Shown here piece after piece: positions 337 to 34,254 of a stretch of 64,000 nt of DNA. The stretch spans positions 55,471 through 119,470 of IMG/VR virus record IMGVR_UViG_3300005253_000004, one strand, 5' to 3'. Origin of the DNA: a virus. The position numbers were made by a program, and so were the translations under genes. The notes under the pieces are model-generated. The model was not told the DNA's origin. It was given only the letters and a program-made list of their open reading frames with translations, and ran no database searches. Position 1 is the first letter of the stretch; every line of letters starts with the position of its first letter.

Positions 337-1737
337 CTACCCTTTATTAGCCTTCGCTTTCTTCTGCGCTTGCAGCTCAGCAGGGGTGTACTTCCGCTTA
401 CGTGGGCCCTCATCAACCTCGCAAGTGTCTGCTTCTACTTCGTTATTCGTGATACTCATCCTGCTAAGGTCCACCTCAAGGAACACGCTCCGCTTGGAAC
501 GCTTGGCGAACCGCTGCTTGAGGTCAACCAGCTCCATCACGATCTCTTCATCGGATAGTTCTTGTTGCCGCATCCCAATGATGCAGGCTGCCTCTTGCAG
601 ATGCTTGACCGAACCTTGTGCCATCTCCAGGCTGAGAGGATCCCTCTTCTTCGGGTCCCTCCCGAACCCTGAGCGGTTGGTCTGCGCTGCTGTCCATACT
701 AGTATGTTGTGGCGCTTCGCAAAACGGGAGAGATCACGGCTGATCGCACCCAGCCAATCCCATACCCTATCCCTACTGTACCCGGTATCACAAGGCCGCA
801 TCCTCTCGATGAAGTCCAGCACCAGCACGTCAGGCTTCCACCCGAGTAGGTTGACCCACTTCATCATCTCGGATTCGAGATCGTCCACGCTAACCTCTCG
901 GTTTACCTCAGTAATCCGGAGCTTTTCATGTAACCCTTCTCGCCACTTCCGCTCCAGCTCTGGTGTGTACGCCACGCCTGGGTCATCGATGATGTCTTGC
1001 ACCTTGACGCCTGTGATCTTAGACAGCACACGTTCTGTCTGCTCCTCAAGCGACAACTCATTGGTGACCAGCCATACCCTGCGCTCCTCTACTGCGGACA
1101 TCTTGTGCGCCATGTTCACCAGCATGCTGGACTTACCATCCCCCGTGGGGGCCATTATGATACCGAGCTGCTTCGTTCGCAGCCCACCCCCTGTCCACTT
1201 GTCGATGACGTGGATCCCACACGGGATACGCACTAGCTCTGGTGTGAACCCATGGCTATCAATGAGGTTGTCGATGGCCTCGCGCACATCCATCGTCCTG
1301 TCCTCGTTCAGATCCCCATGCTTAGTGAGGAATCTGTACAAAGCTTTAAGCATGTCACCACCCTCAAGCTCCGCCTGCTTCTTCAAGAAACCTTGGTCTG
1401 CGCTCAATTCTTGGAAGTCACGCACCACACCCGTATCCCTCGCCTTACCTAGCGTGTAGAGCTGGGTGGACCGGTCAGGTATGGTTTCTGTGATGCTGTC
1501 GAGTGCAGCTTTGTACCTCAAGTCGTACGCTTCCTTGTCTTTGTCTTCGAACACCTTGTGTAGTGTGTTGATGGACGGCTGCTCTCCGTGCTTTCGGGTG
1601 AAAGCAAAAAGCTCAGCCAGGATAGGTACCAGCTCAGAGGTGTTGAGCCACGAGGGCTTGAATGATGTCGCAAACTTGCGAGCGTCCTCCGGACGTGCGG
1701 TCAAGGCATAGAGGAAGGCCTTCTCATCGAACTTCAT
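337..1737 (-). CDS. DnaB-like replicative DNA helicase
   Basis: This 466-aa protein has the RecA-fold core of DnaB/gp4-type hexameric helicases, which unwind DNA ahead of the fork. Walker A is near residues 195-204 (MAPTGDGKSS) and Walker B near 303-311 (DVLVLDFIE). A sensor-like WTAAQTNRSG segment and a late KQRFAKRSKR basic stretch also match the family. The first 170 residues would be the DnaB-like N-terminal domain but are divergent. The start overlaps the upstream small gene by ATGA. It is the last gene of the long leftward array. Confidence 0.9.
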   Translation of the reverse strand: MKFDEKAFLYALTARPEDARKFATSFKPSWLNTSELVPILAELFAFTRKHGEQPSINTLHKVFEDKDKEAYDLRYKAALDSITETIPDRSTQLYTLGKARDTGVVRDFQELSADQGFLKKQAELEGGDMLKALYRFLTKHGDLNEDRTMDVREAIDNLIDSHGFTPELVRIPCGIHVIDKWTGGGLRTKQLGIIMAPTGDGKSSMLVNMAHKMSAVEERRVWLVTNELSLEEQTERVLSKITGVKVQDIIDDPGVAYTPELERKWREGLHEKLRITEVNREVSVDDLESEMMKWVNLLGWKPDVLVLDFIERMRPCDTGYSRDRVWDWLGAISRDLSRFAKRHNILVWTAAQTNRSGFGRDPKKRDPLSLEMAQGSVKHLQEAACIIGMRQQELSDEEIVMELVDLKQRFAKRSKRSVFLEVDLSRMSITNNEVEADTCEVDEGPRKRKYTPAELQAQKKAKANKG

Positions 1738-2012
1738 ACTAGGCTCCCTGCCGCTCTAGCGTAGTACGCTTTACCTACGTCTTTCTCTGAATTAAGGAGC
1801 AGCCAAACTATTACTATGCTCTCTGGCATAGAGAGACCACACTCATTACATTTTAAGTATGCAGGATTCATTGAGTGCCGTTTCCAGCTAGCCTCGCAGG
1901 CTAGGTGTGTAATTCCTGATCCTTGTTTTTTCCAATCTGCCCAACGAGGTTCTAGTATAGCCCACTCCCCTATCCTTATCAATTCTATTACATCTTTACC
2001 ATTAGCTTTCAT
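1734..2012 (-). CDS. W-HxC-CxxC family small protein, copy 1
   Basis: 92 aa. Trp17 starts the N-terminal strand. The histidine/cysteine site is spaced as HLAC (36-39), one residue longer than usual. CNEC is at 55-58, followed by the Pro-initiated helix MPESIVIVWLLL. A 20-residue tail follows the helix. A strong AGGAGG site precedes ATG 2012. Function unknown; probably binds a metal through 1 His and 3 Cys (inference). Confidence 0.75.
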   Translation of the reverse strand: MKANGKDVIELIRIGEWAILEPRWADWKKQGSGITHLACEASWKRHSMNPAYLKCNECGLSMPESIVIVWLLLNSEKDVGKAYYARAAGSLV

Positions 2013-2072
2013 GCTTCCTCCTTGTACCGGGTCAAATATTTCCCATAGTGGTACACGTTTTCATGCTCGTCA

Positions 2073-2101
2073 ATTCGAGCGAATAAACTGTTTAGGTGTA
2101 G
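2073..2101. repeat. 29-bp direct repeat, copy 1
   Basis: ATTCGAGCG followed by ACTGTTTAGGTGTAG, separated by a few variable bases. It lies in the gap between two W-HxC-CxxC genes and recurs at 2398-2426. Read leftward, the frame through both copies gives LHLNS..ARI, so it may be a remnant of coding sequence. Confidence 0.55.
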
Positions 2102-2108
2102 CCTCTGC

Positions 2109-2384
2109 TTACGGTAGATCTTCTTCGTTGTTCCACATGTACAAGTTATGGAAGCCTACTATCTCATCTGGCTCAGAGGTTTCGCACTGGCCGCACACCC
2201 TATCGTAGTATAAGCAAAACGACCACTCTTCTTCGCTAAACCTAGAGATATCCCCACCACAGCGGTGTTGAATGACTACCCACTTACCATACTTAGGGCC
2301 GCTATCTGGCGCCGTGGCACGCACCATCCGCCAGTCACCCTTTGTAAATAGTATTTCAAATACCAGTCTGGGTTCTACTTTCAT
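2109..2384 (-). CDS. W-HxC-CxxC family small protein, copy 2
   Basis: 91 aa with the full family layout: GDW (16-18), QHRC (39-42), CGQC (64-67), then EPDEIVGFHNLYMW and an acidic tail. It is most like copy 3 at 3849-4112, sharing the GFHNL.MW.N.ED ending, so the two look like a recent duplication now split by RtcB. Function unknown. Confidence 0.8.
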   Translation of the reverse strand: MKVEPRLVFEILFTKGDWRMVRATAPDSGPKYGKWVVIQHRCGGDISRFSEEEWSFCLYYDRVCGQCETSEPDEIVGFHNLYMWNNEEDLP

Positions 2385-3848: not shown

Positions 3849-4112
3849 TTATACTGTATCTTCTTTGTTGTCCCACATCATTAAGTTGTGGAAGCCTATC
3901 ATCTCTTTAGGCTCAAGCATCTTGCAGCAGCTACATCGCCGATTACTATGATAACAAAGTGACCACCCATTATCACTAAATAGCTTCTCTTCATATACAC
4001 TTGAGTCACAACGATGTTGAACAATGAGCCACTGCCCGTAGCCTCCCGGTCGTGTTACACGGACTAATCGAAAGTCACCTTTATCAACCAGTATGTTAAA
4101 CTTGTAACTCAT
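3849..4112 (-). CDS. W-HxC-CxxC family small protein, copy 3
   Basis: 87 aa. ATG 4112 overlaps the ligase stop (TGATG). The usual Trp is replaced by Phe (GDFRLV, residues 12-17). HRC is at 33-35 and CSCC at 60-63, followed by EPKEMIGFHNLMMW and an acidic tail. Closest visible relative is copy 2. Function unknown. Confidence 0.8.
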   Translation of the reverse strand: MSYKFNILVDKGDFRLVRVTRPGGYGQWLIVQHRCDSSVYEEKLFSDNGWSLCYHSNRRCSCCKMLEPKEMIGFHNLMMWDNKEDTV

Positions 4113-5071
4113 CACATGTCATCCCTTGAACGCCACCCTAACCAAACCGGGAACCGAGGCTTCGCTGTCTCTCCGCTTGGCTGATGCTTGTACTTAGCGA
4201 TGTACCCTATGTAGATCTGCTTGTTATTCCACCATTCTTTGCGTTGCTTTTTCGTCACTCCCTTCATGGTGCCTATAGAGAACTCGATGCCTGTCTTGAG
4301 GTCACGACACAGCCACTTGCCGAGGTGCCCGTTGGGTACCTTGCCTGCCTTGGCGCTGGACCTCTCCGATCTACCATGAGCATTGGTTTTCTTGGGGTTG
4401 GTGTTGGTACACATCTCTTCAAACCCAATGATCTCTGCCTCATCATCTTGGAAATGCTTGTACTTACCCATACCACCATGAGTCATAGTGCTGCGACCGT
4501 GGAGATACACATGTCCTTGCCTTGCGATGACCCCTTCATACCCCTCGTCCACACACTTGTTCCAATACTTCATGAATCCTTCAGAATCAAAGACAAGGGT
4601 TGGTTTTACCAACTTGATGCACGCTGGCTTAGGCCTGGGCAGCTTGTCCAACTGCTTCACTCTCTGGTTATAGAAGTCAGGGTTATCATAGATATCGAAC
4701 ACGTAGTAGATAAAGTCAGGCTCACCCTCTACCTTCATGATAGGACCGGAGGACTCACCGAATGTCTTGGCACCCTTGATGAACAGCTCACCATCCATGC
4801 CCTCTACCCCGTACTCTTCCAGCACCTTGCGGATGTGGAGGTTGGGGATGGGCTTGAGTTTGAAGCTCATAGGTGTCCCGTTTGGGTACGTGACACACCG
4901 GATCCCGTCAATCTTGGGGGTGCATAGCGATGGGTACTGCACGTCTACCTTAGGGTCACGAATGGTAAACGGTTTCATAGGCCTGAAGGGGCCTTGTAGT
5001 TCTGCTTCTGTCTTGTTTACCGGCTTCCTGTACTTGGGCTTGTACTTCTTGAACGTCTTAGACTTTTTCAC
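4112..5071 (-). CDS. ATP-dependent DNA ligase
   Basis: 319 aa, the length of small phage ligases such as T7's. Motif I is KIDGIR with adenylated Lys53. MDGELF, FDIYD (motif III) and EGVIAR (motif IV) follow. A KYKHFQDDEAEI segment marks the start of the OB domain. The enzyme seals nicks during replication and repair. The start is GTG at 5071, with GGAG 10-12 nt upstream, overlapping the previous gene. The N-terminus is very Lys-rich. Confidence 0.9.
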   Translation of the reverse strand: MKKSKTFKKYKPKYRKPVNKTEAELQGPFRPMKPFTIRDPKVDVQYPSLCTPKIDGIRCVTYPNGTPMSFKLKPIPNLHIRKVLEEYGVEGMDGELFIKGAKTFGESSGPIMKVEGEPDFIYYVFDIYDNPDFYNQRVKQLDKLPRPKPACIKLVKPTLVFDSEGFMKYWNKCVDEGYEGVIARQGHVYLHGRSTMTHGGMGKYKHFQDDEAEIIGFEEMCTNTNPKKTNAHGRSERSSAKAGKVPNGHLGKWLCRDLKTGIEFSIGTMKGVTKKQRKEWWNNKQIYIGYIAKYKHQPSGETAKPRFPVWLGWRSRDDM

Positions 5072-5345
5072 TTTTATCTATCTCCTTCCAATTCATCATA
5101 GCCACCAGCCCTACGATTTCTTTAGGCACGGGTTTTTGACACTCCCAGCATCTATCCTCTTTATTAGGTTCCGCGTCCTGCCACTCCCAACACCAGTGAG
5201 CCTCCTCCCCATCGAATCTAAAGCCACACCCTACTATATGCTCACCATAGATTGTAGCATTATCATCATCATCCCCGCTGTGGTGGTACTTAACTACCGC
5301 CCACCCTTTTATGTCAGGCACTAAAATCTCTCTCGCAGAGCGCAT
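5058..5345 (-). CDS. W-HxC-CxxC family small protein, copy 4
   Basis: 95 aa. GW at 14-15, a stretched His..Cys site (HIVGC), CWEC, then PVPKEIVGLVAMMNW. The middle has an extra Trp-rich acidic segment (CWEWQDAEPN). The start overlaps the upstream stop (TGATG). Function unknown. Confidence 0.75.
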   Translation of the reverse strand: MRSAREILVPDIKGWAVVKYHHSGDDDDNATIYGEHIVGCGFRFDGEEAHWCWEWQDAEPNKEDRCWECQKPVPKEIVGLVAMMNWKEIDKSEKV

Positions 5346-6505: not shown

Positions 6506-7955
6506 CGAACCCCTCCTCCTCCCATATTTTCTTCCTTGCGGCCGAGTGTCGCTTCAAGATCGCTCCCGTCTGATCATTAAAGTCTATTACCAAAACCTCA
6601 TGTTTCCCTGCTGCTTTTCTCAAGCCTCGGCCAATCTTCTGAAGCGCTGCCACTTTGGACTTCCCACCTCCAGCCAAGATGAGGGTGCGTAGGTTGGGTA
6701 TATCCACACCCTCTTCGTAAATACCTGTCGCAATTATAGCACTTATTTTCCCAGATTGCAAGTCAGCTATCCCTTTGGTTCTATCCTTGTTCTTTGTAGC
6801 CCCGTTATGAACTGCTGGAACTGGAATCCCCTTATTTATCGCCATTCTTCGGAGGATACTTGCATGTCCTAATCTAGATGTCATCACTAGTGCAGGCTTC
6901 GGACACTTGACCAGCTCCTCTATGATTCTCTTGTTCCTGTTCAAGTTCAGTACGATGGCATGGTCGTAGACATCAGGCCAGCTTTTTGGGCGTCCGATAT
7001 CTGGCATCTTAATTATCACCACCCTAGGCGGCGTAAGGTAGCCAGCTTTGATGAGCCGTTCATTGGTAATATGAGCGAGTCTGTCACCAGTACACCCCAT
7101 GAGGAGCTGGTTGCTGTACTCGTCCTTCAAGAACGGAGTCGCAGTGAGTCCAAATCTATAGTAAGCACGGCGGAATTGCCGAGACACCGAAACAAGCTGA
7201 TTACCCACCGCTATCTTGCTGGCTGCGAGGTGAGCCTCATCGAAGAAGATCTGCTCTGCCCCAAGGAACTGTTTAATTTTCTCGTTGTCACCCTCTTTGA
7301 AGAGCCTATCTAGTGTCTGCACCGTAGCTACAGTAACTCCTGACGTGTTAGGATCAAACACTCCGTCGCCTATCTGCCCTGTGTCTATGCCGTACTTCTT
7401 GAACCTTTCCCTTGCCTGGGTAACGAGGTGCTTACGATGTACTATAAACATGGTGGGTACTGGTATCGCTTGGCATAAGGCTACAGCCAGCTCAGTCTTA
7501 CCGCCTCCCGTAGCTATCTGAAGCACACCTTGAGGCCAGTGGTACCCTGCGGTAGTGCCCATGAATACTTTGTTGTTCACCGCAGCAAGAAAGGCATCGG
7601 CTTGGTAATCTCTTAGAGGTACGCTATACTCATAGCTAGGCATCTGCGGCCTATGCCTTAGGTCGTTGAAGGTGAAGGGCATCGTAGCCAGTGCTGCCAG
7701 CTCTGCGTGGATGTAGGGTAACAACCCTGTAGGAAAGAAGGCACTACCATTGCTAGGGTGTGGCTTACTGAGGATGCTTGTGCGTCCATCCCATCCTTTT
7801 GCTCCCTTGGTCTGGAGCCATAGCTTGTGTTGCCTCATGTACCGGGCACCAGGGGCCATCGTCTTGACAGCCTCCCGTACCTGAGCATACATCTCTAGCT
7901 CACCGTCACCTTCTGGCTTGACCAGGGCTATGGTGTTGTCGAATTCAATCAGCAT
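6486..7955 (-). CDS. UvsW/SSL2-like superfamily 2 DNA helicase
   Basis: 489 aa. Walker A is IATGGGKTEL (147-156), then FFDEAHLAAS (motif II), FGLTATP (motif III), and a C-terminal helicase domain with ILAGGGKSKVAALQKIGRGLRK (motif VI region). The layout matches T4 UvsW and related SF2 helicases that migrate branched DNA and restart forks. It is next to HNH and small W-HxC-CxxC genes. High confidence in the family, moderate in the exact role. Confidence 0.88.
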   Translation of the reverse strand: MLIEFDNTIALVKPEGDGELEMYAQVREAVKTMAPGARYMRQHKLWLQTKGAKGWDGRTSILSKPHPSNGSAFFPTGLLPYIHAELAALATMPFTFNDLRHRPQMPSYEYSVPLRDYQADAFLAAVNNKVFMGTTAGYHWPQGVLQIATGGGKTELAVALCQAIPVPTMFIVHRKHLVTQARERFKKYGIDTGQIGDGVFDPNTSGVTVATVQTLDRLFKEGDNEKIKQFLGAEQIFFDEAHLAASKIAVGNQLVSVSRQFRRAYYRFGLTATPFLKDEYSNQLLMGCTGDRLAHITNERLIKAGYLTPPRVVIIKMPDIGRPKSWPDVYDHAIVLNLNRNKRIIEELVKCPKPALVMTSRLGHASILRRMAINKGIPVPAVHNGATKNKDRTKGIADLQSGKISAIIATGIYEEGVDIPNLRTLILAGGGKSKVAALQKIGRGLRKAAGKHEVLVIDFNDQTGAILKRHSAARKKIWEEEGFDVKERD

Positions 7956-8226
7956 CTGTCTCCGATCCCCATCGTTGAAGTTTTAGTAGCCCCACGATCC
8001 CATCGGACGGAGCTGCATTACACACATTACATTGTGGGGAGTTATCTTCTACGTTCACCGCGTTTGTACCTAAAGTACACCGATGTATGATGTGATACCT
8101 ACCACTCATGTCTGCTGGTGTTCTTTTGTAGAGGCACCATAACCCTTCTTCAAACAGGATGGCTCTATCCGCAGATTCCGCACCACTGCGGTGCGGTGGA
8201 CTAAAGATGTCTTTAAGCTTTATCAT
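7945..8226 (-). CDS. W-HxC-CxxC family small protein, copy 5
   Basis: 93 aa. EEGLWCLYK strand, IIHRC, CNVC, then PSDGIVGLLKLQRW. The end overlaps the start of the UvsW-like gene, and the start overlaps copy 6. First of three consecutive copies (5-7). Function unknown. Confidence 0.8.
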   Translation of the reverse strand: MIKLKDIFSPPHRSGAESADRAILFEEGLWCLYKRTPADMSGRYHIIHRCTLGTNAVNVEDNSPQCNVCNAAPSDGIVGLLKLQRWGSETDAD

Positions 8227-8524
8227 TTAGTGCCCACCTTGCAAGCGTTATGTAACCTTCCATCTCATCAGGCACACGCTCACCGCATCGCCCGCACTTC
8301 CATGTACTTCGGAAAGAGGGTCCGTCAGCAGCGTCAACAACCACACAGTACCATCGCTCGCCATGTTGGTGGTACCTCCTACTTGTTACTATTGCTTTGC
8401 CGGTGTTCAAGACTAGCTGCCAATCTCCTTGGATAACGGGGGTAGACCCGGGCCACAGTATGACGTCTGCTTCGTATAGTTTTCCTAGGTCATCCCTTCT
8501 AGACCACGTATTTCTAGTTGTCAT
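8213..8524 (-). CDS. W-HxC-CxxC family small protein, copy 6
   Basis: 103 aa. QGDWQLV strand, then HQH in place of HxC, WKCGRC, VPDEMEGYITLARW. Nearly the same ending as copy 7, so the pair is a tandem duplication. The HxH form shows the first metal-site position accepts His or Cys. Function unknown. Confidence 0.8.
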   Translation of the reverse strand: MTTRNTWSRRDDLGKLYEADVILWPGSTPVIQGDWQLVLNTGKAIVTSRRYHQHGERWYCVVVDAADGPSFRSTWKCGRCGERVPDEMEGYITLARWALNDKA

Positions 8525-8885
8525 CTACCGCCCACCTTGCGAGGTTGATGTAGCCTTCCATCTCTTCGGGCACTTGCTCGCTGCAATGCCCACACTTCCA
8601 CTTATCCTCCCCTGGATAATCTTCCTTGGGTGATGATGATTTAAAGTAAGAGATTACAGTGTACCATCGCTTACCATGCCTGTGGTATTGCCTGTACCTT
8701 AATCTTTTGCCGGGGTAGACACATAGCTTCCAGTCACCTTGGATTATAGGCGTAGCGTTACTCTGGTGGTACTTCTCCGCCTCATGATCCTCTCTCTTCA
8801 AAGGGTCTTTGCGGTACGCCTTCCTTGACCTCGGGTGCCTGTCATTTGTCGGTGCCACAGACCCTGCGACGGACTTCGTTTTCAT
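8514..8885 (-). CDS. W-HxC-CxxC family small protein, copy 7
   Basis: 123 aa. A 40-residue basic extension (MKTKSVAGSVAPTNDRHPR...) precedes the family domain: QGDWKLC, HRHGKRW, WKCGHC, VPEEMEGYINLARW. Closest to copy 6. AAGCTGGAG precedes ATG 8885. Function unknown. Confidence 0.8.
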   Translation of the reverse strand: MKTKSVAGSVAPTNDRHPRSRKAYRKDPLKREDHEAEKYHQSNATPIIQGDWKLCVYPGKRLRYRQYHRHGKRWYTVISYFKSSSPKEDYPGEDKWKCGHCSEQVPEEMEGYINLARWAVDDN

Positions 8886-9304: not shown

Positions 9305-9989
9305 CAGTTGGCTCCCTCATAATCCTGTACTGTTTGGTTGTGACTGCTTGCTTCACCTTGTTGGTGATAGCAGCCTTCGTATCCTTGCCTTTGCCCATGC
9401 CCTCCAGTGCCTCGGCCATCGTGTTCTGCCCTTCGACCAGCTTCTCCATACCCTTAGGCACCCAATCATGGGTGATGACATACCTCATACACGTAGCTAC
9501 GTCGGTCAGCCTTGTGTTGAGCCGCTGCTTTAGCATGTCTATCTTGCCTTGAGGTTGCCCGTCCCTTACCGCTACGAACAACTCTTCACAACAGTCAGCG
9601 AAGCTATCAAGCCCGGTGATATCCTGTCGTAGCTTGCGTGTACTTCGGTACTCCTGCTTACAGGGCGCACACACTACGATGAGGTTGTCAGGTCGTGCCT
9701 CACCACCCACCTTGAGTGGTACGTAGAACATCAGCCGTGCTGCGTTCAACGTCGCCCTGCCTAGATAGCTGAGGCGTGTGTCGCAGAACACACACTTGCC
9801 ACGGTACTGGTGGAAGCACGCTTCTGCGTCTGACACCTTGATCTTTTCATACGTCTGCCATAGCTTGTCCTTCCCTGTCACCTTGGAGTACGCCTTCTCT
9901 ATCTCGTTGTTGATCTCCTCTATGCCGTGCTTCAGGAAGGGTGTGTTCAACCTCTTAGGTACACGCCTTGTCCGTTTCTTAGCCTCCAT
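9297..9989 (-). CDS. HNH-type nuclease domain protein
   Basis: 230 aa. A zinc-linked HNH-like core lies at about residues 60-120: GKCVFCDTRL, then ARLMFYVPLKVGGEARPDNLIVVC and APCKQEY. The usual His before the loop is replaced by Tyr (FYVPL), so catalytic activity is uncertain. The C-terminal 100 residues are helical. It may be an HNH relative or a repurposed DNA-binding protein. Confidence 0.6.
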   Translation of the reverse strand: MEAKKRTRRVPKRLNTPFLKHGIEEINNEIEKAYSKVTGKDKLWQTYEKIKVSDAEACFHQYRGKCVFCDTRLSYLGRATLNAARLMFYVPLKVGGEARPDNLIVVCAPCKQEYRSTRKLRQDITGLDSFADCCEELFVAVRDGQPQGKIDMLKQRLNTRLTDVATCMRYVITHDWVPKGMEKLVEGQNTMAEALEGMGKGKDTKAAITNKVKQAVTTKQYRIMREPTDE

Positions 9990-10326
9990 ACTGTAGTACC
10001 TCCCAGTTCTGAAACTTCCACACCGCTATCATGCCCTCGGGTATCTCTTTGGTGCAGCGCCAGCAATGTGAGCTGTCGTCGGGGTATACCACTACTTGAT
10101 ACACGTAGTTACCTCTCTTATGTGGGTAAGGTTCCTGCCCCTCGTACCCATTAGGGTAACACACATGCTTGAGCAGCGAGTAGTATTTACTCCGACTTGA
10201 CCTGAAGCTTTGTCCTTCTTCCGGCTGACGTAGCTTTTCGATAGTCCAGTCTCCATCGTTAAGTAGCACTTCCGCATCAGCTTGCGCGTCTCGCGCTGCC
10301 ATGTAGTTAACGAAGGGCTTAATCAT
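9979..10326 (-). CDS. W-HxC-CxxC family small protein, copy 8
   Basis: 115 aa. NDGDWTIEKL strand, KHVC, a 30-residue insert (YPNGYEGQEPYPHKRG...), CWRC, then EIPEGMIAVWKFQNW. A helical 17-residue lead precedes the Trp strand. Function unknown. Confidence 0.75.
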   Translation of the reverse strand: MIKPFVNYMAARDAQADAEVLLNDGDWTIEKLRQPEEGQSFRSSRSKYYSLLKHVCYPNGYEGQEPYPHKRGNYVYQVVVYPDDSSHCWRCTKEIPEGMIAVWKFQNWEVLQYGG

Positions 10327-13574: not shown

Positions 13575-13805
13575 CTATCTACCTCCGATTTCAACGGTGG
13601 GCTCATCCGGCTGATGCTCAGCACCACACGCTATGCACACTAGCACCTCGGAATTTTCCTTAGTTTCCGTGGGGTTGAACCATTTGGTCAGCTCTACCTG
13701 TGTCTCTTTCGGCTTGTTGTTTTTCTTCTCGTCCGTTGTACCTCCGCAGAAGTGGGTTACTTTCTCATCCATTGAAAACCAATCACTAAGCACAGCTTCA
13801 CTCAT
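13575..13805 (-). CDS. Small CxxC protein, 76 aa
   Basis: ATG 13805 overlaps the upstream stop (ATGA) and follows AGGAG. The sequence starts MSEAVLSDWFSMDEK and has HFC near residue 20. It ends with a CIACGAEH knuckle near residues 57-64. The His-x-Cys... no: order is HFC then CxxC, as in the main family, but the Trp strand and Pro-helix are missing, so membership is doubtful. Possible distant or degenerate relative. Confidence 0.55.
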   Translation of the reverse strand: MSEAVLSDWFSMDEKVTHFCGGTTDEKKNNKPKETQVELTKWFNPTETKENSEVLVCIACGAEHQPDEPTVEIGGR

Positions 13806-14206: not shown

Positions 14207-14496
14207 TTCATTATGTCCCCATTCTGTAGCTTGAACAACGCCACGATACTAGGTGGCATTCGCTCAGCGCAGTAAGGACACGCTGTCTTATTACTGTGAT
14301 GCTCTATCAGCATCCGACAAGGAGCGCTAGACACTTTACAGTCGTGTGATATGACTGACTGCCATCCCTCTGTGTCAGCCCAAGAGGTGGGGTGGGGCTT
14401 GTGTAGCCCCCACTTTCCTTCCTCGAATAGAACTTCAGTCGCCTTGATGGCTTCCTTGTGACTGTCTGCCTTCAATGAAAGACCAGAGAGGCTCAC
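14203..14496 (-). CDS. W-HxC-CxxC family small protein, copy 10
   Basis: 97 aa. EEGKWGLHK strand, ISHDC, CPYC, then MPPSIVALFKLQNG. Immediately downstream of the VWA metallopeptidase gene with an ATGA overlap. Function unknown. Confidence 0.8.
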   Translation of the reverse strand: MSLSGLSLKADSHKEAIKATEVLFEEGKWGLHKPHPTSWADTEGWQSVISHDCKVSSAPCRMLIEHHSNKTACPYCAERMPPSIVALFKLQNGDIMK

Positions 14497-22939: not shown

Positions 22940-23128
22940 TTAGCTCCTTTTACACACTCTGGAGAAGCATAGCTTAGCAGACGAGGACAGTCCTCGTTGC
23001 GTAGAGTCAGTGCAGACCTTGCCTCTCTCATAGGTGATGATGTTGCCTAATCTTTGGTTCTCTTCGATGTCGAGGCAGCAGCCTGAAATCCAAGGCAGCA
23101 GCAGCAGTACAACGATCAGGTATCTCAC
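22940..23128 (-). CDS. Small lipoprotein, 62 aa
   Basis: GTG start at 23128 overlaps the upstream stop (TAGTG) and follows GAGGAG. A signal helix (RYLIVVLLLLPWISGC) ends in a lipobox-like ISGC. The mature part is about 45 residues with further Cys. An exported lipoprotein; it could be an outer-membrane spanin or an envelope-exclusion factor (inference). Confidence 0.6.
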   Translation of the reverse strand: MRYLIVVLLLLPWISGCCLDIEENQRLGNIITYERGKVCTDSTQRGLSSSAKLCFSRVCKRS

Positions 23129-23424
23129 TATGTCTCCTCGTTCTCGCAACGGTTGCCATACCAAACCAACTCTTGCATTCCTATTACTTGGTCGGGTGCT
23201 GACTCTCCGCACACCTGACAAGACCAGCCCTCCTTGAAATCGTAGTTGCAGTAGGCATACACAGAGTCTACTGAGTTGGCTTCGGTACATCTTGCATCAT
23301 TAATGTGCTTGTGTCTAGCACCAGCATTCCATTGGCGTCCCATGTGCCGATACCTATGGATCACCCAGTTATCTTCCAAATCTAGGTAGGTATCCTCTAT
23401 AAAGCTTTTGAAGTGCCTGCTCAC
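23128..23424 (-). CDS. W-HxC-CxxC family small protein, copy 15
   Basis: 98 aa. LEDNWVIHRY strand, RHKH (HxH variant), CQVC, then SAPDQVIGMQELVWY. Acidic C-terminal tail. Extra Cys at ARC and AYC in the loop. Function unknown. Confidence 0.78.
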   Translation of the reverse strand: MSRHFKSFIEDTYLDLEDNWVIHRYRHMGRQWNAGARHKHINDARCTEANSVDSVYAYCNYDFKEGWSCQVCGESAPDQVIGMQELVWYGNRCENEET

Positions 23425-23592: not shown

Positions 23593-23841
23593 TTACTTCT
23601 CCCATGCACACAGGTTGATGAGCCCTTTGAAATGCTCGGGTATCTCAGCCATGCATACACTACATTGGACTTCACGCTTCAAAGCAGCCCCGTAGCACAG
23701 CGTGTCACAGTGGTGTAGATAATACCATGCTTCGTTGGATGGTGGATACTTTGTATCTCGGGTATACTTTATTATACCCCAACCATCAACCAATGGTGTC
23801 TTAGTAAAAACTAAGCCGGTTACGACAAGACCATGAGTCAT
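23593..23841 (-). CDS. W-HxC-CxxC family small protein, copy 16
   Basis: 82 aa. VDGWGIIKY strand, LHHC, CSVC, then EIPEHFKGLINLCAW. Ends in WEK, as copy 11 does. Function unknown. Confidence 0.8.
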   Translation of the reverse strand: MTHGLVVTGLVFTKTPLVDGWGIIKYTRDTKYPPSNEAWYYLHHCDTLCYGAALKREVQCSVCMAEIPEHFKGLINLCAWEK

Positions 23842-24023
23842 TCAGTCACCTCGATCTTAGCTACACGGTGCCAGAACACAGCACCGTACCTTTGCTTAGC
23901 CCCTTCGGCTAGCCACACATGGGCTTGGCCCTCGTTCTTGAACCCCGACTCGATGATGACCTGAGTACAAGTCACCTCGCCGGTAACATCCTTGTCCTCC
24001 AGAGTGAAGATTACTTTAGCCAT
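23838..24023 (-). CDS. Hypothetical protein, 61 aa
   Basis: Start at ATG 24023 (MAKVIFTLED), overlapping copy 17. It looks like a small alpha/beta protein: ITFTLED-like strand, CTQVIIE, helix GQAHVWLAEGAKQRYG, strand AKIEVTE. Unrecognised. Confidence 0.55.
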   Translation of the reverse strand: MAKVIFTLEDKDVTGEVTCTQVIIESGFKNEGQAHVWLAEGAKQRYGAVFWHRVAKIEVTE

Positions 24024-24288
24024 CACTGACCCCTTTGGCACCTGCCATGAGCAGCACCATCAAGCCTTGTATCTCATCAGGCACGGGCTCTTCGCAGTAG
24101 TAACAAACACACGGATCGTCGGAGGTGAACCATGCGTAGCTTCCAGGTCGAACAGTTGTGTTTTTGGATAGCTTACGTACCTTACTGTAAACTTTGAGGT
24201 CACACTTATGGTTTGCATAGTACTCAAACAGGTGCTCTTCTTCGTTATTTATGATGTTCCAATTACCTAGAGTAAACAAGGCCATCAC
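24016..24288 (-). CDS. W-HxC-CxxC family small protein, copy 17
   Basis: 90 aa. TLGNWNIIN strand, ANHKC, a Lys-rich loop, CYYC, then PVPDEIQGLMVLLM. The helix lacks the usual terminal Trp. Function unknown. Confidence 0.78.
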   Translation of the reverse strand: MMALFTLGNWNIINNEEEHLFEYYANHKCDLKVYSKVRKLSKNTTVRPGSYAWFTSDDPCVCYYCEEPVPDEIQGLMVLLMAGAKGVSDG

Positions 24289-29355: not shown

Positions 29356-29670
29356 TTAGGGGGCTTTTTGAGCAATTTGCATTATGGCGTACGCATGTTC
29401 TGATTCGAGCATCAAATACAAACATTCCAGCTCCTCCGGAGGCGATCTCAGACAGCGGGAGCAAGCCCAGCAGGGATCGGGGTGTCTTGCTCTCATGGGG
29501 AACTCGGCGTTCAAGTACAATACTAGTAGGTACTCAAGGCCCCCTTTGAGCACCGGTTGGCACAGGTGGTACATGTGGTGTAACCCCGAAACACTCGAAA
29601 CACTCGATTTCGCTATCACCCAGTCGTTCATTTCGAGCTTGATTTTTAGTCTGGAGCCGTCTTTAGTCAT
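29356..29670 (-). CDS. W-HxC-CxxC family small protein, copy 18
   Basis: 104 aa; last gene of the dense array. MNDWVIAK strand, YHLC, an extra Cys before CSRC (PCWACSRC), then SPPEELECLYLML. A 20-residue helical tail follows. The stop runs into a GC-rich hairpin. Function unknown. Confidence 0.75.
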   Translation of the reverse strand: MTKDGSRLKIKLEMNDWVIAKSSVSSVSGLHHMYHLCQPVLKGGLEYLLVLYLNAEFPMRARHPDPCWACSRCLRSPPEELECLYLMLESEHAYAIMQIAQKAP

Positions 29671-29912
29671 GCTCCCTCCTTCAAGAACCAGAACATGGCC
29701 TGGATGCCCTCCGGAGGAGCCTCCCTACATGCGAAACACGGGATACCCCGGTAGCAAAGACCGTAAACGAACGGATGCCATTCCAAATCGCTTCCGCATT
29801 TATGCCTACTGCAGGAACCACGGCATCTATGCTCGATGCTGATCGCCCGGATGGAGTTCAAATTGCGCCAGGCAAGCCGGAATGCCCCGATAGTGATTAG
29901 AGGCTCAGTCAT
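29667..29912 (-). CDS. W-HxC-CxxC family small protein, copy 19
   Basis: 81 aa. IGAFRLAW replaces the GDW strand (Phe first, Trp later). EHRC, CFAC, then APPEGIQAMFWFLKEG. Ends right after the helix. ATGA overlaps on both sides. Confidence 0.78.
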   Translation of the reverse strand: MTEPLITIGAFRLAWRNLNSIRAISIEHRCRGSCSRHKCGSDLEWHPFVYGLCYRGIPCFACREAPPEGIQAMFWFLKEGA

Positions 29913-30183
29913 TTTCCCTCCTAGAGTCCATATCTCCGGTCAGCATGACAAACAGCGCCTGAAGACCCTCAGGGACACGGGAGTGACATTGCGTGCAAGG
30001 ATATTGGAAGTACCGATAGATGTCTCGCCGAGCTGTCCACCACGAATGTTCACAGTTATGCCACAGATAATACAAGTAAGGGGTTCCTTGCTGGTGTTCT
30101 GGCGTTCCTTCTGTTTGCTCGTACAGCCCCCACCCTGCTTCAAAGGCGATGGGGTCAGGTTGCGGTTTCGGTTCAGTATCCAT
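29905..30183 (-). CDS. W-HxC-CxxC family small protein, copy 20
   Basis: 92 aa. EAGWGLYE strand, LWHNC, CTQC, then RVPEGLQALFVMLTGDM. The LTGDM ending is shared with copy 25. Pro-rich lead. Function unknown. Confidence 0.8.
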   Translation of the reverse strand: MDTEPKPQPDPIAFEAGWGLYEQTEGTPEHQQGTPYLYYLWHNCEHSWWTARRDIYRYFQYPCTQCHSRVPEGLQALFVMLTGDMDSRREND

Positions 30184-30186
30184 AGT

Positions 30187-30408
30187 CTACTCCTCCTTCA
30201 TGAATAAGAGCATCACTTGGATACTGTCCGGAGCTCTCTCTTGACAATTCCGACAAGGGCGATGACAAAGGCTAGGGGTTCCGCTAAACCCTTCCCATCG
30301 GTCCTTACACCGGTGCTCGATGAACCACCAGTCATATCCGCCCTTGTACCTGTACCGGGATAATCGGAAGTTTCCATATTCAAAGCGGACCGTTTTGTAG
30401 TCAGCCAT
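30187..30408 (-). CDS. W-HxC-CxxC family small protein, copy 21
   Basis: 73 aa, the shortest copy and close to a minimal domain: YGNFRLSRY (Phe for Trp), WFIEHRC, CRNC, APDSIQVMLLFMKEE. Useful for modelling the core fold. Confidence 0.8.
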   Translation of the reverse strand: MADYKTVRFEYGNFRLSRYRYKGGYDWWFIEHRCKDRWEGFSGTPSLCHRPCRNCQERAPDSIQVMLLFMKEE

Positions 30409-30640
30409 TGGGCTCTTCCTTCATAATCCAGAATATCGCTTGAAGGCCGTCTGAGGGACGACTCTTACACCAAGAGCACTTCCACCCCCGCGCCTGGACG
30501 CTGAAGATACGTCCGCGCCAGCAACCTTCATCGTCGTGGCCTTCTGGCACGGGGCACTTGTGCTCTAGGTACGTGTGCCGCATTATTGTCCCCATGTGCC
30601 GGCGGACCAGTCGGTAATCATTGTCAGTTTTGAGAACCAT
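30401..30640 (-). CDS. W-HxC-CxxC family small protein, copy 22
   Basis: 79 aa from ATG 30640, preceded by GAGG. TDNDYRLV (Tyr for Trp), LEHKC, WKCSWC, then RPSDGLQAIFWIMKEE. The 50 codons upstream in frame belong to the neighbouring gene. Function unknown. Confidence 0.75.
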   Translation of the reverse strand: MVLKTDNDYRLVRRHMGTIMRHTYLEHKCPVPEGHDDEGCWRGRIFSVQARGWKCSWCKSRPSDGLQAIFWIMKEEPNG

Positions 30641-30654: not shown

Positions 30655-31080
30655 TCAGTAGGCCCTTCCTAAGGGGAGTAAAACCCCGCCTGACCAAGGC
30701 CCAAATGTACCCGGCGGGTCGTCTTCTTCCACGCGCCTGCGCAGTTCCAGGACTTCGCTTACCTCCAAGGAGGTGTTGTCCGGCTCCAGCAGGCACCAGA
30801 CAGCAACGATGCTTGCGGGTGGAACTGCGAAGCAGTTCTCGCAGTGCCAGTTGGGCTTGATCTTCCGGGTCCCGTTGATAGAGAAGTCAGACCCTATGTC
30901 GGCTCGGTACTCACAGAGGTACATATCCCATTCAGTCTTTTCGCACTGGTGCCAGAGCCCATGCGTGGTGAACCTGTTATGATACTGGAGGATCCTCCAC
31001 CGGCCTCGTTTGAGCTTCTCAGCACCGTACTCTGTTTCGATGTACTCTGCTTGGGACTTCCATACGCCTTTCAGACTCAT
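30655..31080 (-). CDS. W-HxC-CxxC family protein, copy 23, with C-terminal extension
   Basis: 141 aa from ATG 31080 (ATGA overlap). RGRWRILQY strand, LWHQC, WHCENC, then VPPASIVAVWCLL. About 40 residues follow (acidic, then PGTFGPWSGGVLLPLG). One of four copies with an added tail. Confidence 0.75.
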   Translation of the reverse strand: MSLKGVWKSQAEYIETEYGAEKLKRGRWRILQYHNRFTTHGLWHQCEKTEWDMYLCEYRADIGSDFSINGTRKIKPNWHCENCFAVPPASIVAVWCLLEPDNTSLEVSEVLELRRRVEEDDPPGTFGPWSGGVLLPLGRAY

Positions 31081-31343
31081 GACCCCTCCATCAAGAACCA
31101 GAAACACGCCTGAAGCCCTTCGGCGGGGCGTTCTTTGCATAAGGGGCATTCCGTGCCTCGGTTGCCGGTCGTGTAGATCATCCCACGCCATTGTTCTTCC
31201 CATTTAAGGCCAGCAACAGAGCACTTGTGCTCGATGAGGATTACTGCGGGGAGATACACGGCGCCCATCCCGGTTTGACGGGTGTACTGGCGAATTCGCC
31301 ATCTGTCGATCTGGAGGTGGACTGTCGATCCGAGGTCACTCAT
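31077..31343 (-). CDS. W-HxC-CxxC family small protein, copy 24
   Basis: 88 aa. IDRWRIRQY strand, LIEHKC, CPLC, then RPAEGLQACFWFLMEGS. The strand resembles copy 23 and the helix copy 19, in line with local duplication. Function unknown. Confidence 0.8.
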   Translation of the reverse strand: MSDLGSTVHLQIDRWRIRQYTRQTGMGAVYLPAVILIEHKCSVAGLKWEEQWRGMIYTTGNRGTECPLCKERPAEGLQACFWFLMEGS

Positions 31344-31579
31344 GGCTTCATATCCCCTGTCATCAGGACGAACATTGCTTGGATCCCTTCGGGGACTGCT
31401 TTATGACACCAACCACAAGGGTGGTGTAGCCCTCTATACCTATACCGAGTAGCCACTAAGCCAGTGGTGTCTAGACATACGTGATGAAGAAAGTGACTCA
31501 TTTGCCAGCTAGGGCTCTGGTCTTGTGTGACGCAGAGGTCCCAGGTATCCTCAGACCAGATGACGTCTTTGGTCTTCAT
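31340..31579 (-). CDS. W-HxC-CxxC family small protein, copy 25
   Basis: 79 aa. SEDTWDLCV strand, LHHVC, CGWC, then AVPEGIQAMFVLMTGDM. Close to copy 20 in the helix. ATGA overlaps on both sides. Confidence 0.8.
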   Translation of the reverse strand: MKTKDVIWSEDTWDLCVTQDQSPSWQMSHFLHHVCLDTTGLVATRYRYRGLHHPCGWCHKAVPEGIQAMFVLMTGDMKP

Positions 31580-31959
31580 GGCTTGTACTCCCAGATCTGT
31601 CCAGGCTGCCCGATCGGTGTGCCACTACCCATGTAGAAGAAACCCCCTGGGACTAGGTAGAGGTAGTTCGAGGAGTAGAAGGGTGAGAGCTCTTCTTGGT
31701 ACTGGGGTTCTTCTAGGAGGTCGAAGTTCTTCAGCTTCCATAATCCCATGATCGAGTCCGGGATATCTGCTCCACAATGCATACAGGTCTGCATCGTCTT
31801 CATTTCCCAGGTGCTGATCGGCTTGTACTGGAGCAGAAAGTTCCACTTCCATTTGCACTTGTGATAAACTGTATCGAACATATCCTCGTACCCAGGGATA
31901 CCCTTGATGATCCAGCCTTGATCCTTAAATAGAACTCCTTCGTCACGCAAGCGACTCAT
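31576..31959 (-). CDS. W-HxC-CxxC family protein, copy 26, with aromatic extension
   Basis: 127 aa from ATG 31959, preceded by CAGGAG. DQGWIIKG strand, VYHKC, CMHC, then DIPDSIMGLWKLKNF. About 48 extra residues are rich in Tyr, Phe and Gly (FYSSNYLYLVPGGFFYMGSG). Function unknown. Confidence 0.75.
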   Translation of the reverse strand: MSRLRDEGVLFKDQGWIIKGIPGYEDMFDTVYHKCKWKWNFLLQYKPISTWEMKTMQTCMHCGADIPDSIMGLWKLKNFDLLEEPQYQEELSPFYSSNYLYLVPGGFFYMGSGTPIGQPGQIWEYKP

Positions 31960-32231
31960 CCGTGCTCCTGCCCGTATCGCACCAGCTCCCAAAACCCAAC
32001 CAGCTCAGTAGGAACGTCGGCGCAACAGTGGCTACAGCGTGGGTCGCCTTGAGGGTCATGTATCATGTTGGCATCCTTCTTCCACACGCTGGAGCATCGA
32101 TGCCACAATGTGGCAGTCGGTTGCCTCGCTCTGCCCTTCGACGGCGGGCCTAAGTATTCATCGTTGATGATGAAGAACCCATCATCCTCCCACAGGATTT
32201 TCCGATCGAGAAACTTAGGCACGGTAGTCAC
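31956..32231 (-). CDS. W-HxC-CxxC family small protein, copy 27
   Basis: 91 aa, GTG start at 32231 directly after the upstream stop. EDDGFFIIND replaces the Trp strand, LWHRC, CSHC, then DVPTELVGFWELVRY. No good ribosome site, so translation is probably coupled to the upstream gene. Confidence 0.75.
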   Translation of the reverse strand: MTTVPKFLDRKILWEDDGFFIINDEYLGPPSKGRARQPTATLWHRCSSVWKKDANMIHDPQGDPRCSHCCADVPTELVGFWELVRYGQEHG

Positions 32232-32582
32232 TCAAAACGGCATGCCGCGCAGCGAATCGGCCCAAGGATCCGGCTCCGAAGCGTCTGCTATTTCATTTGT
32301 ACTGCGGTCCCAGTCTAGCATGATGTAGGCCCCGGTTAGTCCTTCGGGGCTGAGAGCGTTGCACATCGTGCAGCGCCAGCCCTGCTCATCCGGACTAGAA
32401 TCGAAGCTCCTCCACGCGCCGTACCTGCACTCATAGATGGTACGGTGCTTGACGAGTTCTTCATCGCCGTAGTCATCGCAGTTGTGCCAGATCCGGACGT
32501 CCTTGCTCAATGCACTTTTCAGTAGCCGAAACCGACCTTCTCGCATCAGCATTTGCATGTATGCCCTAGGTTGGTGCGTCAT
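32232..32582 (-). CDS. W-HxC-CxxC family protein, copy 28
   Basis: 116 aa from ATG 32582 (ATGA overlap, GGAGG upstream). REGRFRLLK (Phe for Trp), IWHNC, WRCTMC, then LSPEGLTGAYIMLDW and a 23-residue acidic tail. Function unknown. Confidence 0.76.
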   Translation of the reverse strand: MTHQPRAYMQMLMREGRFRLLKSALSKDVRIWHNCDDYGDEELVKHRTIYECRYGAWRSFDSSPDEQGWRCTMCNALSPEGLTGAYIMLDWDRSTNEIADASEPDPWADSLRGMPF

Positions 32583-32857
32583 CCTAGCATAGCCTCCATA
32601 TGTGTCATCTGCCATAAAGCTTGGATACTCTCGGGGATTTCTTCTTCGCACAACCCACAGCGAGGGGTGTTCTTCATGTTATCAGAGTGGACTACGAGTT
32701 CTTTTCGATCATCCTTAGGGCATTCATGAAGCACGATAGGTGCCTCGGAAAGGTGCTTCCACTTCACACCCCACTTAGTGGGTGCGAGGAGTTTCCACGT
32801 TCCTTCTTGGATTATAGGCGTATCGTTGTACAAGTAGCGATCATCTTCTAGTCCCAT
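32579..32857 (-). CDS. W-HxC-CxxC family small protein, copy 29
   Basis: 92 aa. QEGTWKLLA strand, VLHEC, CGLC, then EIPESIQALWQMTHM. GGGAAG precedes ATG 32857. Function unknown. Confidence 0.8.
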   Translation of the reverse strand: MGLEDDRYLYNDTPIIQEGTWKLLAPTKWGVKWKHLSEAPIVLHECPKDDRKELVVHSDNMKNTPRCGLCEEEIPESIQALWQMTHMEAMLG

Positions 32858-33076: not shown

Positions 33077-33249
33077 TACCCCTCCGTAGGCTCCTTAATT
33101 CTGCGTTGGATCTCTCTGCGAATATCAGCCACTATATACCCGCTACCCGAGTCGTCGTTGAAATAATCCTCATTGTCGTCTATGTATTCTATAAGTTCCT
33201 TCAGCTCGGCTTTGACTGCCATCTCTGCCGCGTATCTATTAATTCCCAT
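33076..33249 (-). CDS. Small acidic helical protein, 57 aa
   Basis: ATG 33249 follows AGGAG. Sequence MGINRYAAEMAVKAELKELI then an acidic stretch (DDNEDYFNDDSGSG) and a basic helix. Unrecognised. Second of two non-family genes in the array. Confidence 0.5.
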   Translation of the reverse strand: MGINRYAAEMAVKAELKELIEYIDDNEDYFNDDSGSGYIVADIRREIQRRIKEPTEG

Positions 33250-33257
33250 GGTGTCTC

Positions 33258-33587
33258 CTATGAGATTGGTGCTTCGTAAAGTCTGACTGCCATCGCAATG
33301 CCTTTGTCGAGAACGAACCCACACCCTTCACACCAATACATCGGGCCGTCGTTGTTCTCGCGGAGCGTCATCTCTTTGTAGTCTTCTCGTCCTTCGCAGT
33401 GGTGGACGAGCATTTCGTGCGGAACTGTGTTGTACTTAACGAGGTACACGTTTTCGGCTATTTTCTTCACCGAAGATTCCGTCTTTTGCGTCTCTTCTTT
33501 GGAAGGGACTCGTTGGTAAACGGTGTCACCCTGACCGAAGAACGCGGGGCGAGCACGACGAATGATGCGAGCTATACCTTCCTTCAT
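33258..33587 (-). CDS. W-HxC-CxxC family protein, copy 30 (diverged)
   Basis: 109 aa. NVYLVKY in place of the Trp strand, LVHHC, YWCEGC, then LDKGIAMAVRLYEAP where Pro is lost. A 40-residue basic lead precedes. Included because the His-Cys and Cys-Cys sites and the order of elements are kept. Confidence 0.65.
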   Translation of the reverse strand: MKEGIARIIRRARPAFFGQGDTVYQRVPSKEETQKTESSVKKIAENVYLVKYNTVPHEMLVHHCEGREDYKEMTLRENNDGPMYWCEGCGFVLDKGIAMAVRLYEAPIS

Positions 33588-33943
33588 AGCTCCTCCTCCA
33601 TGATGATGATCCCTTTGATCCCATCAGAGAGGGTTTTCTCACAGCGACGGCACTTACCGTAGATGCTGATACCTCCTCCTTTGGTCTTGTAATACTCTAC
33701 CCATGACGGAGCCCTGATCCTATCGTCGTCACAGGCATGTGCCAATCGAGACCCTAGATCGTATTGTAGGGCCCTCCATGACGCGAACGAAAACCAGAGC
33801 GGGGAGTTCCTAGCAACGACGTTCAGCCGAGTGTACTCCTTCTGGACCCTCTCTACGATGACAGGCTTCGGGCACCAGTACCAGTCATCAATCTGAGGCC
33901 ACATCTCTTTGCGGATGAGCGTTTTCCGATGGTAGCTTCTCAA
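33584..33943 (-). CDS. W-HxC-CxxC family protein, copy 31 (diverged)
   Basis: 119 aa. I place the start at TTG 33943, overlapping the upstream stop (TTGA) with GAGG at 7 nt, rather than the longer frame to 34066. DWYWCP strand, AHAC, CRRC, then LSDGIKGIIIMEEE. A Trp/Arg-rich middle is extra. Start uncertain. Confidence 0.6.
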   Translation of the reverse strand: MRSYHRKTLIRKEMWPQIDDWYWCPKPVIVERVQKEYTRLNVVARNSPLWFSFASWRALQYDLGSRLAHACDDDRIRAPSWVEYYKTKGGGISIYGKCRRCEKTLSDGIKGIIIMEEEL

Positions 33944-34254
33944 GCTAATCCCTCGTCGCCTGTCCCTAAGCCATCGCTCCAGATGGCTCGAAGTCCATTT
34001 TCGTCTTCTGAGTCCCATATTTCTTTGCATCCTGTACAGTAATACCAGCCGTGAGTAAAGTCCCATCGGACCCTTTCAGTCAGGATCACCCATGTTGAGG
34101 GGTCCCCTGTATCTAAATCTTGCTCACAGATATGCAGAAGGGGCTGTACCCCCTCGTTATCATGCAGGTTCGGATCTCTGACAAACCACGCATCCTTAGG
34201 GAGTTCCTTGACTGGAACCTTGTAAACACCAGTACCCTCTATCCATTCTTCCAT
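33940..34254 (-). CDS. W-HxC-CxxC family protein, copy 32, first gene of the array
   Basis: 104 aa. KDAWFVRD strand, LLHIC, YYCTGC, then an acidic segment and NGLRAIWSDGL. The ATG at 34254 lies only 7 nt below the TATAAT of its promoter, so the mRNA is probably leaderless. Opens the run of 15 family copies. Confidence 0.68.
   Translation of the reverse strand: MEEWIEGTGVYKVPVKELPKDAWFVRDPNLHDNEGVQPLLHICEQDLDTGDPSTWVILTERVRWDFTHGWYYCTGCKEIWDSEDENGLRAIWSDGLGTGDEGLA

What the first reader, a model, noticed from the sequence alone, without database searches (positions are those of the whole stretch)
1734..34254. A 32-copy paralogous family of small W-HxC-CxxC proteins fills a phage genome
Seen directly: 32 minus-strand genes, 73-141 aa, share the same order of elements. 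These are a strand with Trp (or Phe/Tyr) and alternating hydrophobics, then HxC or HxH, then CxxC, then Pro-xx-(I/M/L)-xG and a hydrophobic helix often ending in Trp. Copies are scattered singly, in tandem, and in a run of 15. Known: one-genome expansions this large are rare in phages; a His/Cys + CxxC site suggests a zinc ribbon-like fold. Inference: a variable set of host-targeting or RNA/RNAP-binding factors, each with its own target. I do not know this family by name.
Basis: partly seen in the sequence, partly recalled or inferred. Interest (0 to 1): 0.92.

Follow-up and report, generated by a model that had tools for sequence, protein, structure and literature searches.

The report
35-copy zinc-knuckle protein family in phages
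A complete 119-kb environmental phage genome carries about 35 diverged copies of one undescribed small, probably zinc-binding protein, and related phages carry their own shifting sets, which looks like a diversified kit for binding many partners early in infection.

Summary
HMMs built from only the scattered or only the clustered copies recover nearly all of the other half; shuffled controls do not. The window has 31 secure and 2 marginal copies. The complete genome (119,470 bp, 121-bp terminal repeat) has about 35, plus one broken by a stop codon. A sister genome has 31, a 49-kb relative 17, and 17 of 18 further clade contigs carry copies. The motif is H-x(1-3)-[C/H]...CxxC-xxxx-P. The four ligands are identical in 26 orthologue pairs, while loops are 53-55% identical. 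Two AlphaFold models agree on a beta4-alpha fold without a PDB or viral match. No Pfam, PHROG, NCBIfam, PADLOC or cultured-phage relative was found. Copies sit in fixed early-region slots whose copy number differs between relatives, under purifying selection (median omega 0.33). The main array starts at a sigma70-type promoter conserved in three genomes. Best reading: a metal-stabilised scaffold diversified to bind several, probably host, partners early in infection. Family, ligand site and evolution are well supported; metal, fold and targets are inferred. 'Zinc ribbon' in the strict sense is not supported.

The parts
1734..2012 (-). family copy 1 (92 aa), H-x2-C, CxxC
   Evidence: held-out HMM E=5.4e-9
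2109..2384 (-). family copy 2 (91 aa); AlphaFold query 1
   Evidence: held-out HMM E=3.6e-9; model pLDDT 83.4
3849..4115 (-). family copy 3 (87-88 aa), nearest paralogue of copy 2 (46-49% identity)
   Evidence: held-out HMM E=1.3e-8
5058..5345 (-). family copy 4 (95 aa), H-x3-C
   Evidence: held-out HMM E=6.3e-5
7945..8226 (-). family copy 5 (93 aa)
   Evidence: held-out HMM E=9e-9
8213..8524 (-). family copy 6 (103 aa), HxH
   Evidence: held-out HMM E=2.7e-5
8514..8885 (-). family copy 7 (123 aa), HxH, tandem sister of copy 6 (56% identity)
   Evidence: held-out HMM E=6.9e-6
9979..10326 (-). family copy 8 (115 aa)
   Evidence: held-out HMM E=7.5e-8
13575..13805 (-). marginal copy (HFC...CxxC); a conserved single-copy gene in each relative, 95% identical to G002
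   Evidence: held-out HMM E=0.83 only; absent from the iterated model; orthologue
13802..14206 (-). family copy 9 (134 aa, C-terminal extension)
   Evidence: held-out HMM E=8.8e-5
14203..14496 (-). family copy 10 (97 aa)
   Evidence: held-out HMM E=3.2e-9
15873..16142 (-). family copy 11 (89 aa), HxH
   Evidence: held-out HMM E=5.5e-4
16139..16378 (-). family copy 12 (79 aa), HxH
   Evidence: held-out HMM E=1e-6
16380..16679 (-). family copy 13 (up to 99 aa), HxH
   Evidence: held-out HMM E=3.4e-4
18028..18324 (-). family copy 14 (98 aa)
   Evidence: held-out HMM E=1.1e-5
23128..23424 (-). family copy 15 (98 aa), HxH
   Evidence: held-out HMM E=3e-5
23593..23841 (-). family copy 16 (82 aa)
   Evidence: held-out HMM E=1.6e-6
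24016..24288 (-). family copy 17 (89-90 aa)
   Evidence: held-out HMM E=1.9e-7
29356..29670 (-). array copy (104 aa), last gene of the run
   Evidence: held-out HMM E=0.0041; iterated E=6e-11
29667..29912 (-). array copy (81 aa)
   Evidence: held-out HMM E=8.6e-6
29905..30183 (-). array copy (92 aa)
   Evidence: held-out HMM E=5.3e-7
30187..30408 (-). array copy (73 aa, shortest)
   Evidence: held-out HMM E=2.3e-7
30401..30640 (-). array copy; the domain starts near the ATG at 30640, the long ORF 30401-30796 overlaps the next gene
   Evidence: held-out HMM E=1.3e-4; starts
30655..31080 (-). array copy with C-terminal extension; probable start at 31080
   Evidence: held-out HMM E=3.8e-4; starts
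31077..31343 (-). array copy (88 aa); AlphaFold query 2
   Evidence: held-out HMM E=5.1e-6; model pLDDT 88.2
31340..31579 (-). array copy (79 aa)
   Evidence: held-out HMM E=4.1e-6
31576..31959 (-). array copy; probable start at 31959
   Evidence: held-out HMM E=2.9e-10
31956..32231 (-). array copy (91 aa)
   Evidence: held-out HMM E=2.2e-9
32232..32582 (-). array copy; probable start at 32582
   Evidence: held-out HMM E=2.2e-5
32579..32857 (-). array copy (92 aa)
   Evidence: held-out HMM E=1.8e-9
33258..33587 (-). array copy (109 aa), divergent
   Evidence: iterated HMM E=1.5e-4; orthologues in G002 and G001
33584..34066 (-). array copy with N-terminal extension; true start uncertain
   Evidence: held-out HMM E=0.023; iterated E=6e-8
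33940..34254 (-). marginal, first gene of the array (HIC...CTGC)
   Evidence: scores only when in the training set; orthologues in G002 and G001
34261..34289 (-). promoter-like site TTGCAA-17-TATAAT heading the array
   Evidence: same site in G002 and G001
34301..34329 (+). divergent partner promoter-like site TTGCAA-17-TATAAT

Best explanation
These genes are paralogues of one undescribed phage protein: a small domain of four beta strands and a C-terminal helix, held by one metal (probably zinc) bound by His, Cys/His, Cys and Cys. Shown by sequence: the family, the conserved ligands, purifying selection on the scaffold with faster-changing loops, copy-number turnover in fixed slots of the early region, and a conserved sigma70-type promoter at the head of the main array. 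Predicted: the fold and the metal. Inferred: host RNA polymerase makes the array in the first minutes of infection, and each copy uses the same metal-stabilised scaffold to present different loops to a different partner, most likely host proteins of the defence, transcription, translation or nuclease machinery, inhibiting or redirecting them. The set would be a host-takeover and counter-defence repertoire that stays large because hosts and targets vary.
For: Family beyond chance. Ligands invariant with only Cys/His exchange and 104/104 identical between orthologues, loops 53-55% identical. Two AlphaFold models with the same topology. Real, constrained genes: median omega 0.33 against 0.21 for other early genes and 0.25 for other small ones; dN higher than in other small genes, p=0.04, and than in all others, p=0.002. 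Same slots, different copy numbers between relatives; neighbours more alike than expected, p=0.0014. Head-of-array promoter pair conserved in three genomes, while plus-strand structural genes carry a different element. Wide pI range fits different partners. Present throughout a phage clade.
Against: No target, no expression data, no host known. Omega is below 1 in every class of sites, so an arms race is not demonstrated. Some copies sit among replication genes and have stable orthologues, which would also fit phage-internal roles. Metal binding and fold are predictions.
Confidence: 0.45

Rival explanations
1. A phage-internal set: the paralogues assemble with each other or with phage replication, recombination or packaging proteins, so that their diversity reflects subunit or operon-specific specialisation rather than host targets.
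For: Copies lie between the helicase, ligase, VWA and MoxR-like genes in conserved slots; 26 of 35 have orthologues in the sister phage.
Against: The copy number in a slot changes from 0 to 3 between close relatives, and few orthologues survive in the 73%-terminase relative, which is unusual for subunits of a core machine.
Confidence: 0.25
2. Nucleic-acid-binding factors (RNA or DNA) with different sequence preferences, for example regulators of phage or host transcripts.
For: Zinc-knuckle-like ligands, many Trp (4.2% against 1.6% in large phage proteins), and a strand order like that of PUR repeats (not significant).
Against: Domains are mostly acidic (median net charge -2, pI 4.2-9.2); no nucleic-acid-binding fold matched.
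Confidence: 0.15
3. Mobile or selfish small genes, for example relics of HNH homing endonucleases, that spread by insertion without serving the phage.
For: Many copies scattered singly between genes; the genome also has several HNH-type genes; one copy is broken by a stop codon.
Against: No nuclease motif or family match; purifying selection; neighbours related by tandem duplication.
Confidence: 0.05
4. Chance resemblance among unrelated small Cys/His-containing ORFs, no single family.
Against: Split-half HMM recovery, shuffles, orthologues under selection in other phages and matching structure models.
Confidence: 0.01

Closest known systems
Early host-takeover proteins of phages (for example the ribosome-targeting set of phage phiKZ, PMC10914614)
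   Same: Phage proteins of the early region; the array is first behind a strong host-type promoter.
   Different: Those are unrelated proteins in one phage; here one fold is repeated about 35 times. No target is shown here.
Zinc ribbons and zinc knuckles (Pfam Zn_ribbon_9, zinc_ribbon_16)
   Same: Four Cys/His ligands, one of the two pairs being CxxC.
   Different: Single members reach only E 0.04-0.05; the first pair is Hx(1-3)[CH] at the end of a strand; a C-terminal helix follows CxxC; no fold match.
DUF6980 (PF22400)
   Same: Short protein with an N-terminal Cys pair and a later CxxC; one relative's copy gave 16.4 bits (cut-off 27).
   Different: Profile-profile probability 4%, aligning only nine residues around CxxC.
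Phage multicopy genes such as HNH homing endonucleases
   Same: Many copies scattered between genes of one phage genome.
   Different: No nuclease motif, arrays made by tandem duplication, and separate HNH-type genes in the same genome.

Membership tests
Zinc ribbon (classical) | Two CxxC-type knuckles on beta hairpins | tested here: not met
   First pair is H-x(1-3)-[CH]; only the second is CxxC
Zinc ribbon (classical) | Sequence or fold match to a zinc-ribbon family | tested here: not met
   Pfam best E 0.04-0.05 in single members; no Foldseek hit below 0.001
Zinc ribbon (classical) | Binds one zinc through four Cys/His | not testable with these tools
   Ligand conservation fits, no metal measurement
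DUF6980 | Score above the Pfam cut-off or a profile match | tested here: not met
   16.4 bits against 27; hhalign probability 4%
HNH homing endonuclease | HNH or other nuclease motif | tested here: not met
   No Pfam, PHROG or PADLOC nuclease match beyond chance
PUR-repeat nucleic-acid-binding fold | Structural match to PUR repeats | tested here: not met
   3nm7 at E=2.2, TM 0.27; only the order of strands and helix agrees
Early host-takeover proteins | Early, host-RNAP-driven expression | tested here: inconclusive
   Conserved sigma70-type promoter heads the array; no transcript data
Early host-takeover proteins | Binding to a host target | not testable with these tools
   No host or interaction data

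The most novel reading that the evidence does not exclude
A phage clade has evolved a dedicated repertoire: one novel metal-stabilised scaffold, kept in 30 or more copies per genome, whose loops are diversified through tandem duplication to recognise many different host or defence targets, in effect a library of binders built on a single fold.
Probability: 0.3. Interest if true: 0.85.

Novelty: new variant of a known kind. Interest (0 to 1): 0.63.

Why it matters
Phages usually meet host diversity with many unrelated small proteins. A genome that spends 9% of its length on about 35 versions of one undescribed domain, with copy number shifting between close relatives, is a natural mutational series: same scaffold, same ligand site, different loops. 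If the copies have different targets, pull-downs of a dozen could reveal host weak points or defence systems at once, and the domain would be a compact binding scaffold. If they share one target, the question becomes why a virus needs so many versions. Either answer is testable with synthetic genes.

Tried and rejected
Alignment A1 could not seed a peptide-pattern search (no conserved stretch). A first DNA pattern with the wrong Cys spacing found nothing (my error); the corrected one found two more family-bearing contigs and two matches without a credible family hit (L016, and Pedobacter L019). tblastn of three copies against 50,697 phage records gave nothing significant; the terminase has only one partial 28% relative there. 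198 Bacteroidota genomes searched as a specificity control gave three weak hits, the best (E=3.6e-4) with five stops inside its match. DUF6980 was followed up and dropped. Foldseek against PDB and BFVD gave no usable match for either model. Paper searches found no description of such a family; sample number 3300037246 is in no held paper, so environment and host remain unknown. An HNH or mobile origin was considered and rejected. The G002 and G001 adjacency values each include a locus-edge duplicate, so only the G000 value is used; the 147 members contain at least two such duplicates. The 80% median identity of 'other' ORFs includes spurious overlapping ORFs; the cleaner comparison is.
Full report
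WHAT WAS CLAIMED.

OBSERVATION. The window is bases 55471-119470 of a 119,470-bp IMG/VR record. The first and last 121 bases of the record are identical, so the genome is in all likelihood complete. I collected 33 candidate genes from the ORF list. To avoid circularity I built one HMM from the 18 copies below 25 kb and another from the 15 copies above 29 kb. Each found nearly all copies of the other block (13 of 15 at E 3e-10 to 0.023; 17 of 18 at E 3e-9 to 6e-4), while shuffled ORFs of the whole genome never went below 0.067 with any model. Two genes (13575-13829 and 33940-34254) are marginal; the other 31 are secure in an iterated model. Two further copies lie in the rest of the genome (L003:6977-7321 and L003:16831-17295), and a third (genome about 54227-54516) is interrupted by one in-frame TAG just before its CxxC and was not seen at the matching place of the sister genome. 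The set covers 15% of the window, 9% of the genome and 92% of the array 29356-34254.

RELATIVES. The terminase led to a sister genome (G002, 119,599 bp, terminase 90% identical) and a more distant 49-kb fragment (G001, 73%). They hold 31 and 17 copies. A corrected motif search and the DnaB-type helicase brought the clade to 18 more contigs, 17 of which carry copies. An iterated search gathered 147 proteins, at least two of them locus-edge duplicates. None matches Pfam, PHROGs, NCBIfam or PADLOC beyond chance, nor any cultured phage by tblastn of three members. In 198 Bacteroidota genomes used as a specificity control there was no credible hit.

ANATOMY. Across the aligned members the His is invariant, the second ligand is Cys (81%) or His (19%), and the two Cys of CxxC are 99-100% conserved; an aromatic in strand 2 (W 79%, F 15%, Y 5%), the Pro after CxxC (88%), a helix Leu and a frequent final Trp (53%) complete the pattern. 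Cys-to-His exchange as the only tolerated change is what a metal ligand allows. The pattern occurs in 143 of 147 members and in 2.7% of shuffled members. AlphaFold with two different queries, one scattered and one array copy, gave the same topology: four strands, the Hx[CH] pair at the end of strand 3, CxxC after strand 4, then a C-terminal helix; pLDDT 83.4 and 88.2, pTM 0.73 and 0.76. The alignments behind the two models overlap, so they are not fully independent. Foldseek found nothing at E below 0.001 in the PDB (both models) or among viral models (first model). The fold has no recognised relative, within the limits of a predicted model. Domains are mostly acidic (median pI 6.0, range 4.2-9.2) and rich in Trp.

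EVOLUTION. Of 35 copies, 26 have reciprocal best hits in the sister phage, with median identity 63%. Median dN/dS is 0.33 for the family, 0.21 for all other early-strand genes and 0.25 for other small ones; family dN is higher than that of other small genes (p=0.04). Ligands are identical at 104 of 104 orthologous positions, other core positions at 87%, loops at only 53-55%. Conserved gene slots hold different numbers of copies: between the MoxR-like ATPase and the VWA protein 3, 2, 1 and 1 copies in G000, G003, G002 and G001; between the UvsW-like helicase (6486-7955) and the 9297-9989 gene 3, 2, 1 and 0. Adjacent copies in G000 resemble each other more than other pairs do (permutation p=0.0014). 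In L015 nearby copies are up to 82% identical in DNA. This is birth and death mainly by tandem duplication, in slots that persist.

EXPRESSION CONTEXT. The first ORF of the array starts 7 bases after the -10 hexamer of a TTGCAA-17-TATAAT promoter, so its message would be nearly leaderless or its start lies further in. This promoter is paired with a divergent copy, and the same pair stands at the same place in the two other genomes. Further copies precede other minus-strand operons (genome 37816, 47449, 55805, 62231), all four with a counterpart in G002. Plus-strand (structural) regions carry a different element, TTCCTATAATTA, and the phage encodes a sigma-like protein (11301-12563; weak Sigma70_r4 match). 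By sequence signals the array therefore belongs to the early class. This is inference; there are no transcript data.

MECHANISM. The data show a scaffold with a constrained ligand site, loops that change faster, many copies per genome, an early-type promoter and variable content. The simplest reading is a set of binding proteins with different partners. Early phage proteins commonly engage host machinery (for example ribosome-bound phiKZ proteins, PMC10914614, read), so host partners are most likely, but a phage-internal set is the main rival. Omega below 1 means that an arms race is not demonstrated. A common nucleic-acid-binding role is disfavoured by charge, and a mobile-element origin by the lack of nuclease motifs, the selection and the tandem linkage.

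MEMBERSHIP. It is not a classical zinc ribbon (ligand layout and fold differ), not DUF6980 (tested), not HNH. It may work like a small metal-knuckle adaptor, but it is a family of its own.

VERDICT. A real, large, apparently unlisted protein family that characterises a phage clade. Novelty is rated as a new variant of a known kind (diversified small early proteins of phages); the new part is the single-fold repertoire of 30 or more copies. How rare such an expansion is among phages was not measured here, and the host is unknown.

Noticed in passing
34261-34329; genome 37816, 47449, 55805, 62231 (minus strand): A near-identical sigma70-type promoter (TTGCAA-17-TATAAT, often with aaagtttgaaag in the spacer) recurs before minus-strand operons and is conserved in the sister phage.
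   Followed up: partly
34356, 36545, 53558, 61127 (+), 51214 (-); genome 7128, 22049 (+): A second shared element, TTCCTATAATTA, mostly on the plus strand ahead of structural regions; candidate late promoter for the phage's own sigma-like protein (11301-12563).
   Followed up: partly
L012:2311-2679 (G001 38311-38679): A family ORF in the relative carries in frame the first ~30 codons of a protein like the G000 gene at L001:8204-9421 (probably the major capsid protein), 62% identical over 45 aa: a fusion or a captured fragment.
   Followed up: partly
21562-21948, 27835-28128, 28412-28786 (minus): A second small paralogous family in the same region (shared ...RxGASxRGKARWxxxxxxWSI...).
   Followed up: no
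24532-24882 (minus): An ORF made of 21-nt tandem repeats (AEGSKLY/AEGENLH heptads).
   Followed up: no
21471-21563, 25593-25645, 26640-26662, 27317-27468, 27721-27743: Short intergenic repeats (CTATGATGCTTCATGCAGCATAGACCAATGGC and relatives) that recur between small genes; function unknown.
   Followed up: no
14493-15710 and 16639-17787 (minus): A VWA/metallopeptidase-like (DUF2201) and MoxR-like AAA gene pair, very conserved (92 and 97% identity to G002), with family copies between them.
   Followed up: no
2588-3841 (minus): An RtcB-type RNA ligase gene (Pfam E=2e-121) in a phage whose window has no tRNA gene.
   Followed up: no
42067-49657 (plus): A run of genes that look by eye like methyltransferases, sulfotransferases, a glycosyltransferase and a hexapeptide acetyltransferase next to the terminase: possible surface-glycan or DNA modification genes.
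   Followed up: no
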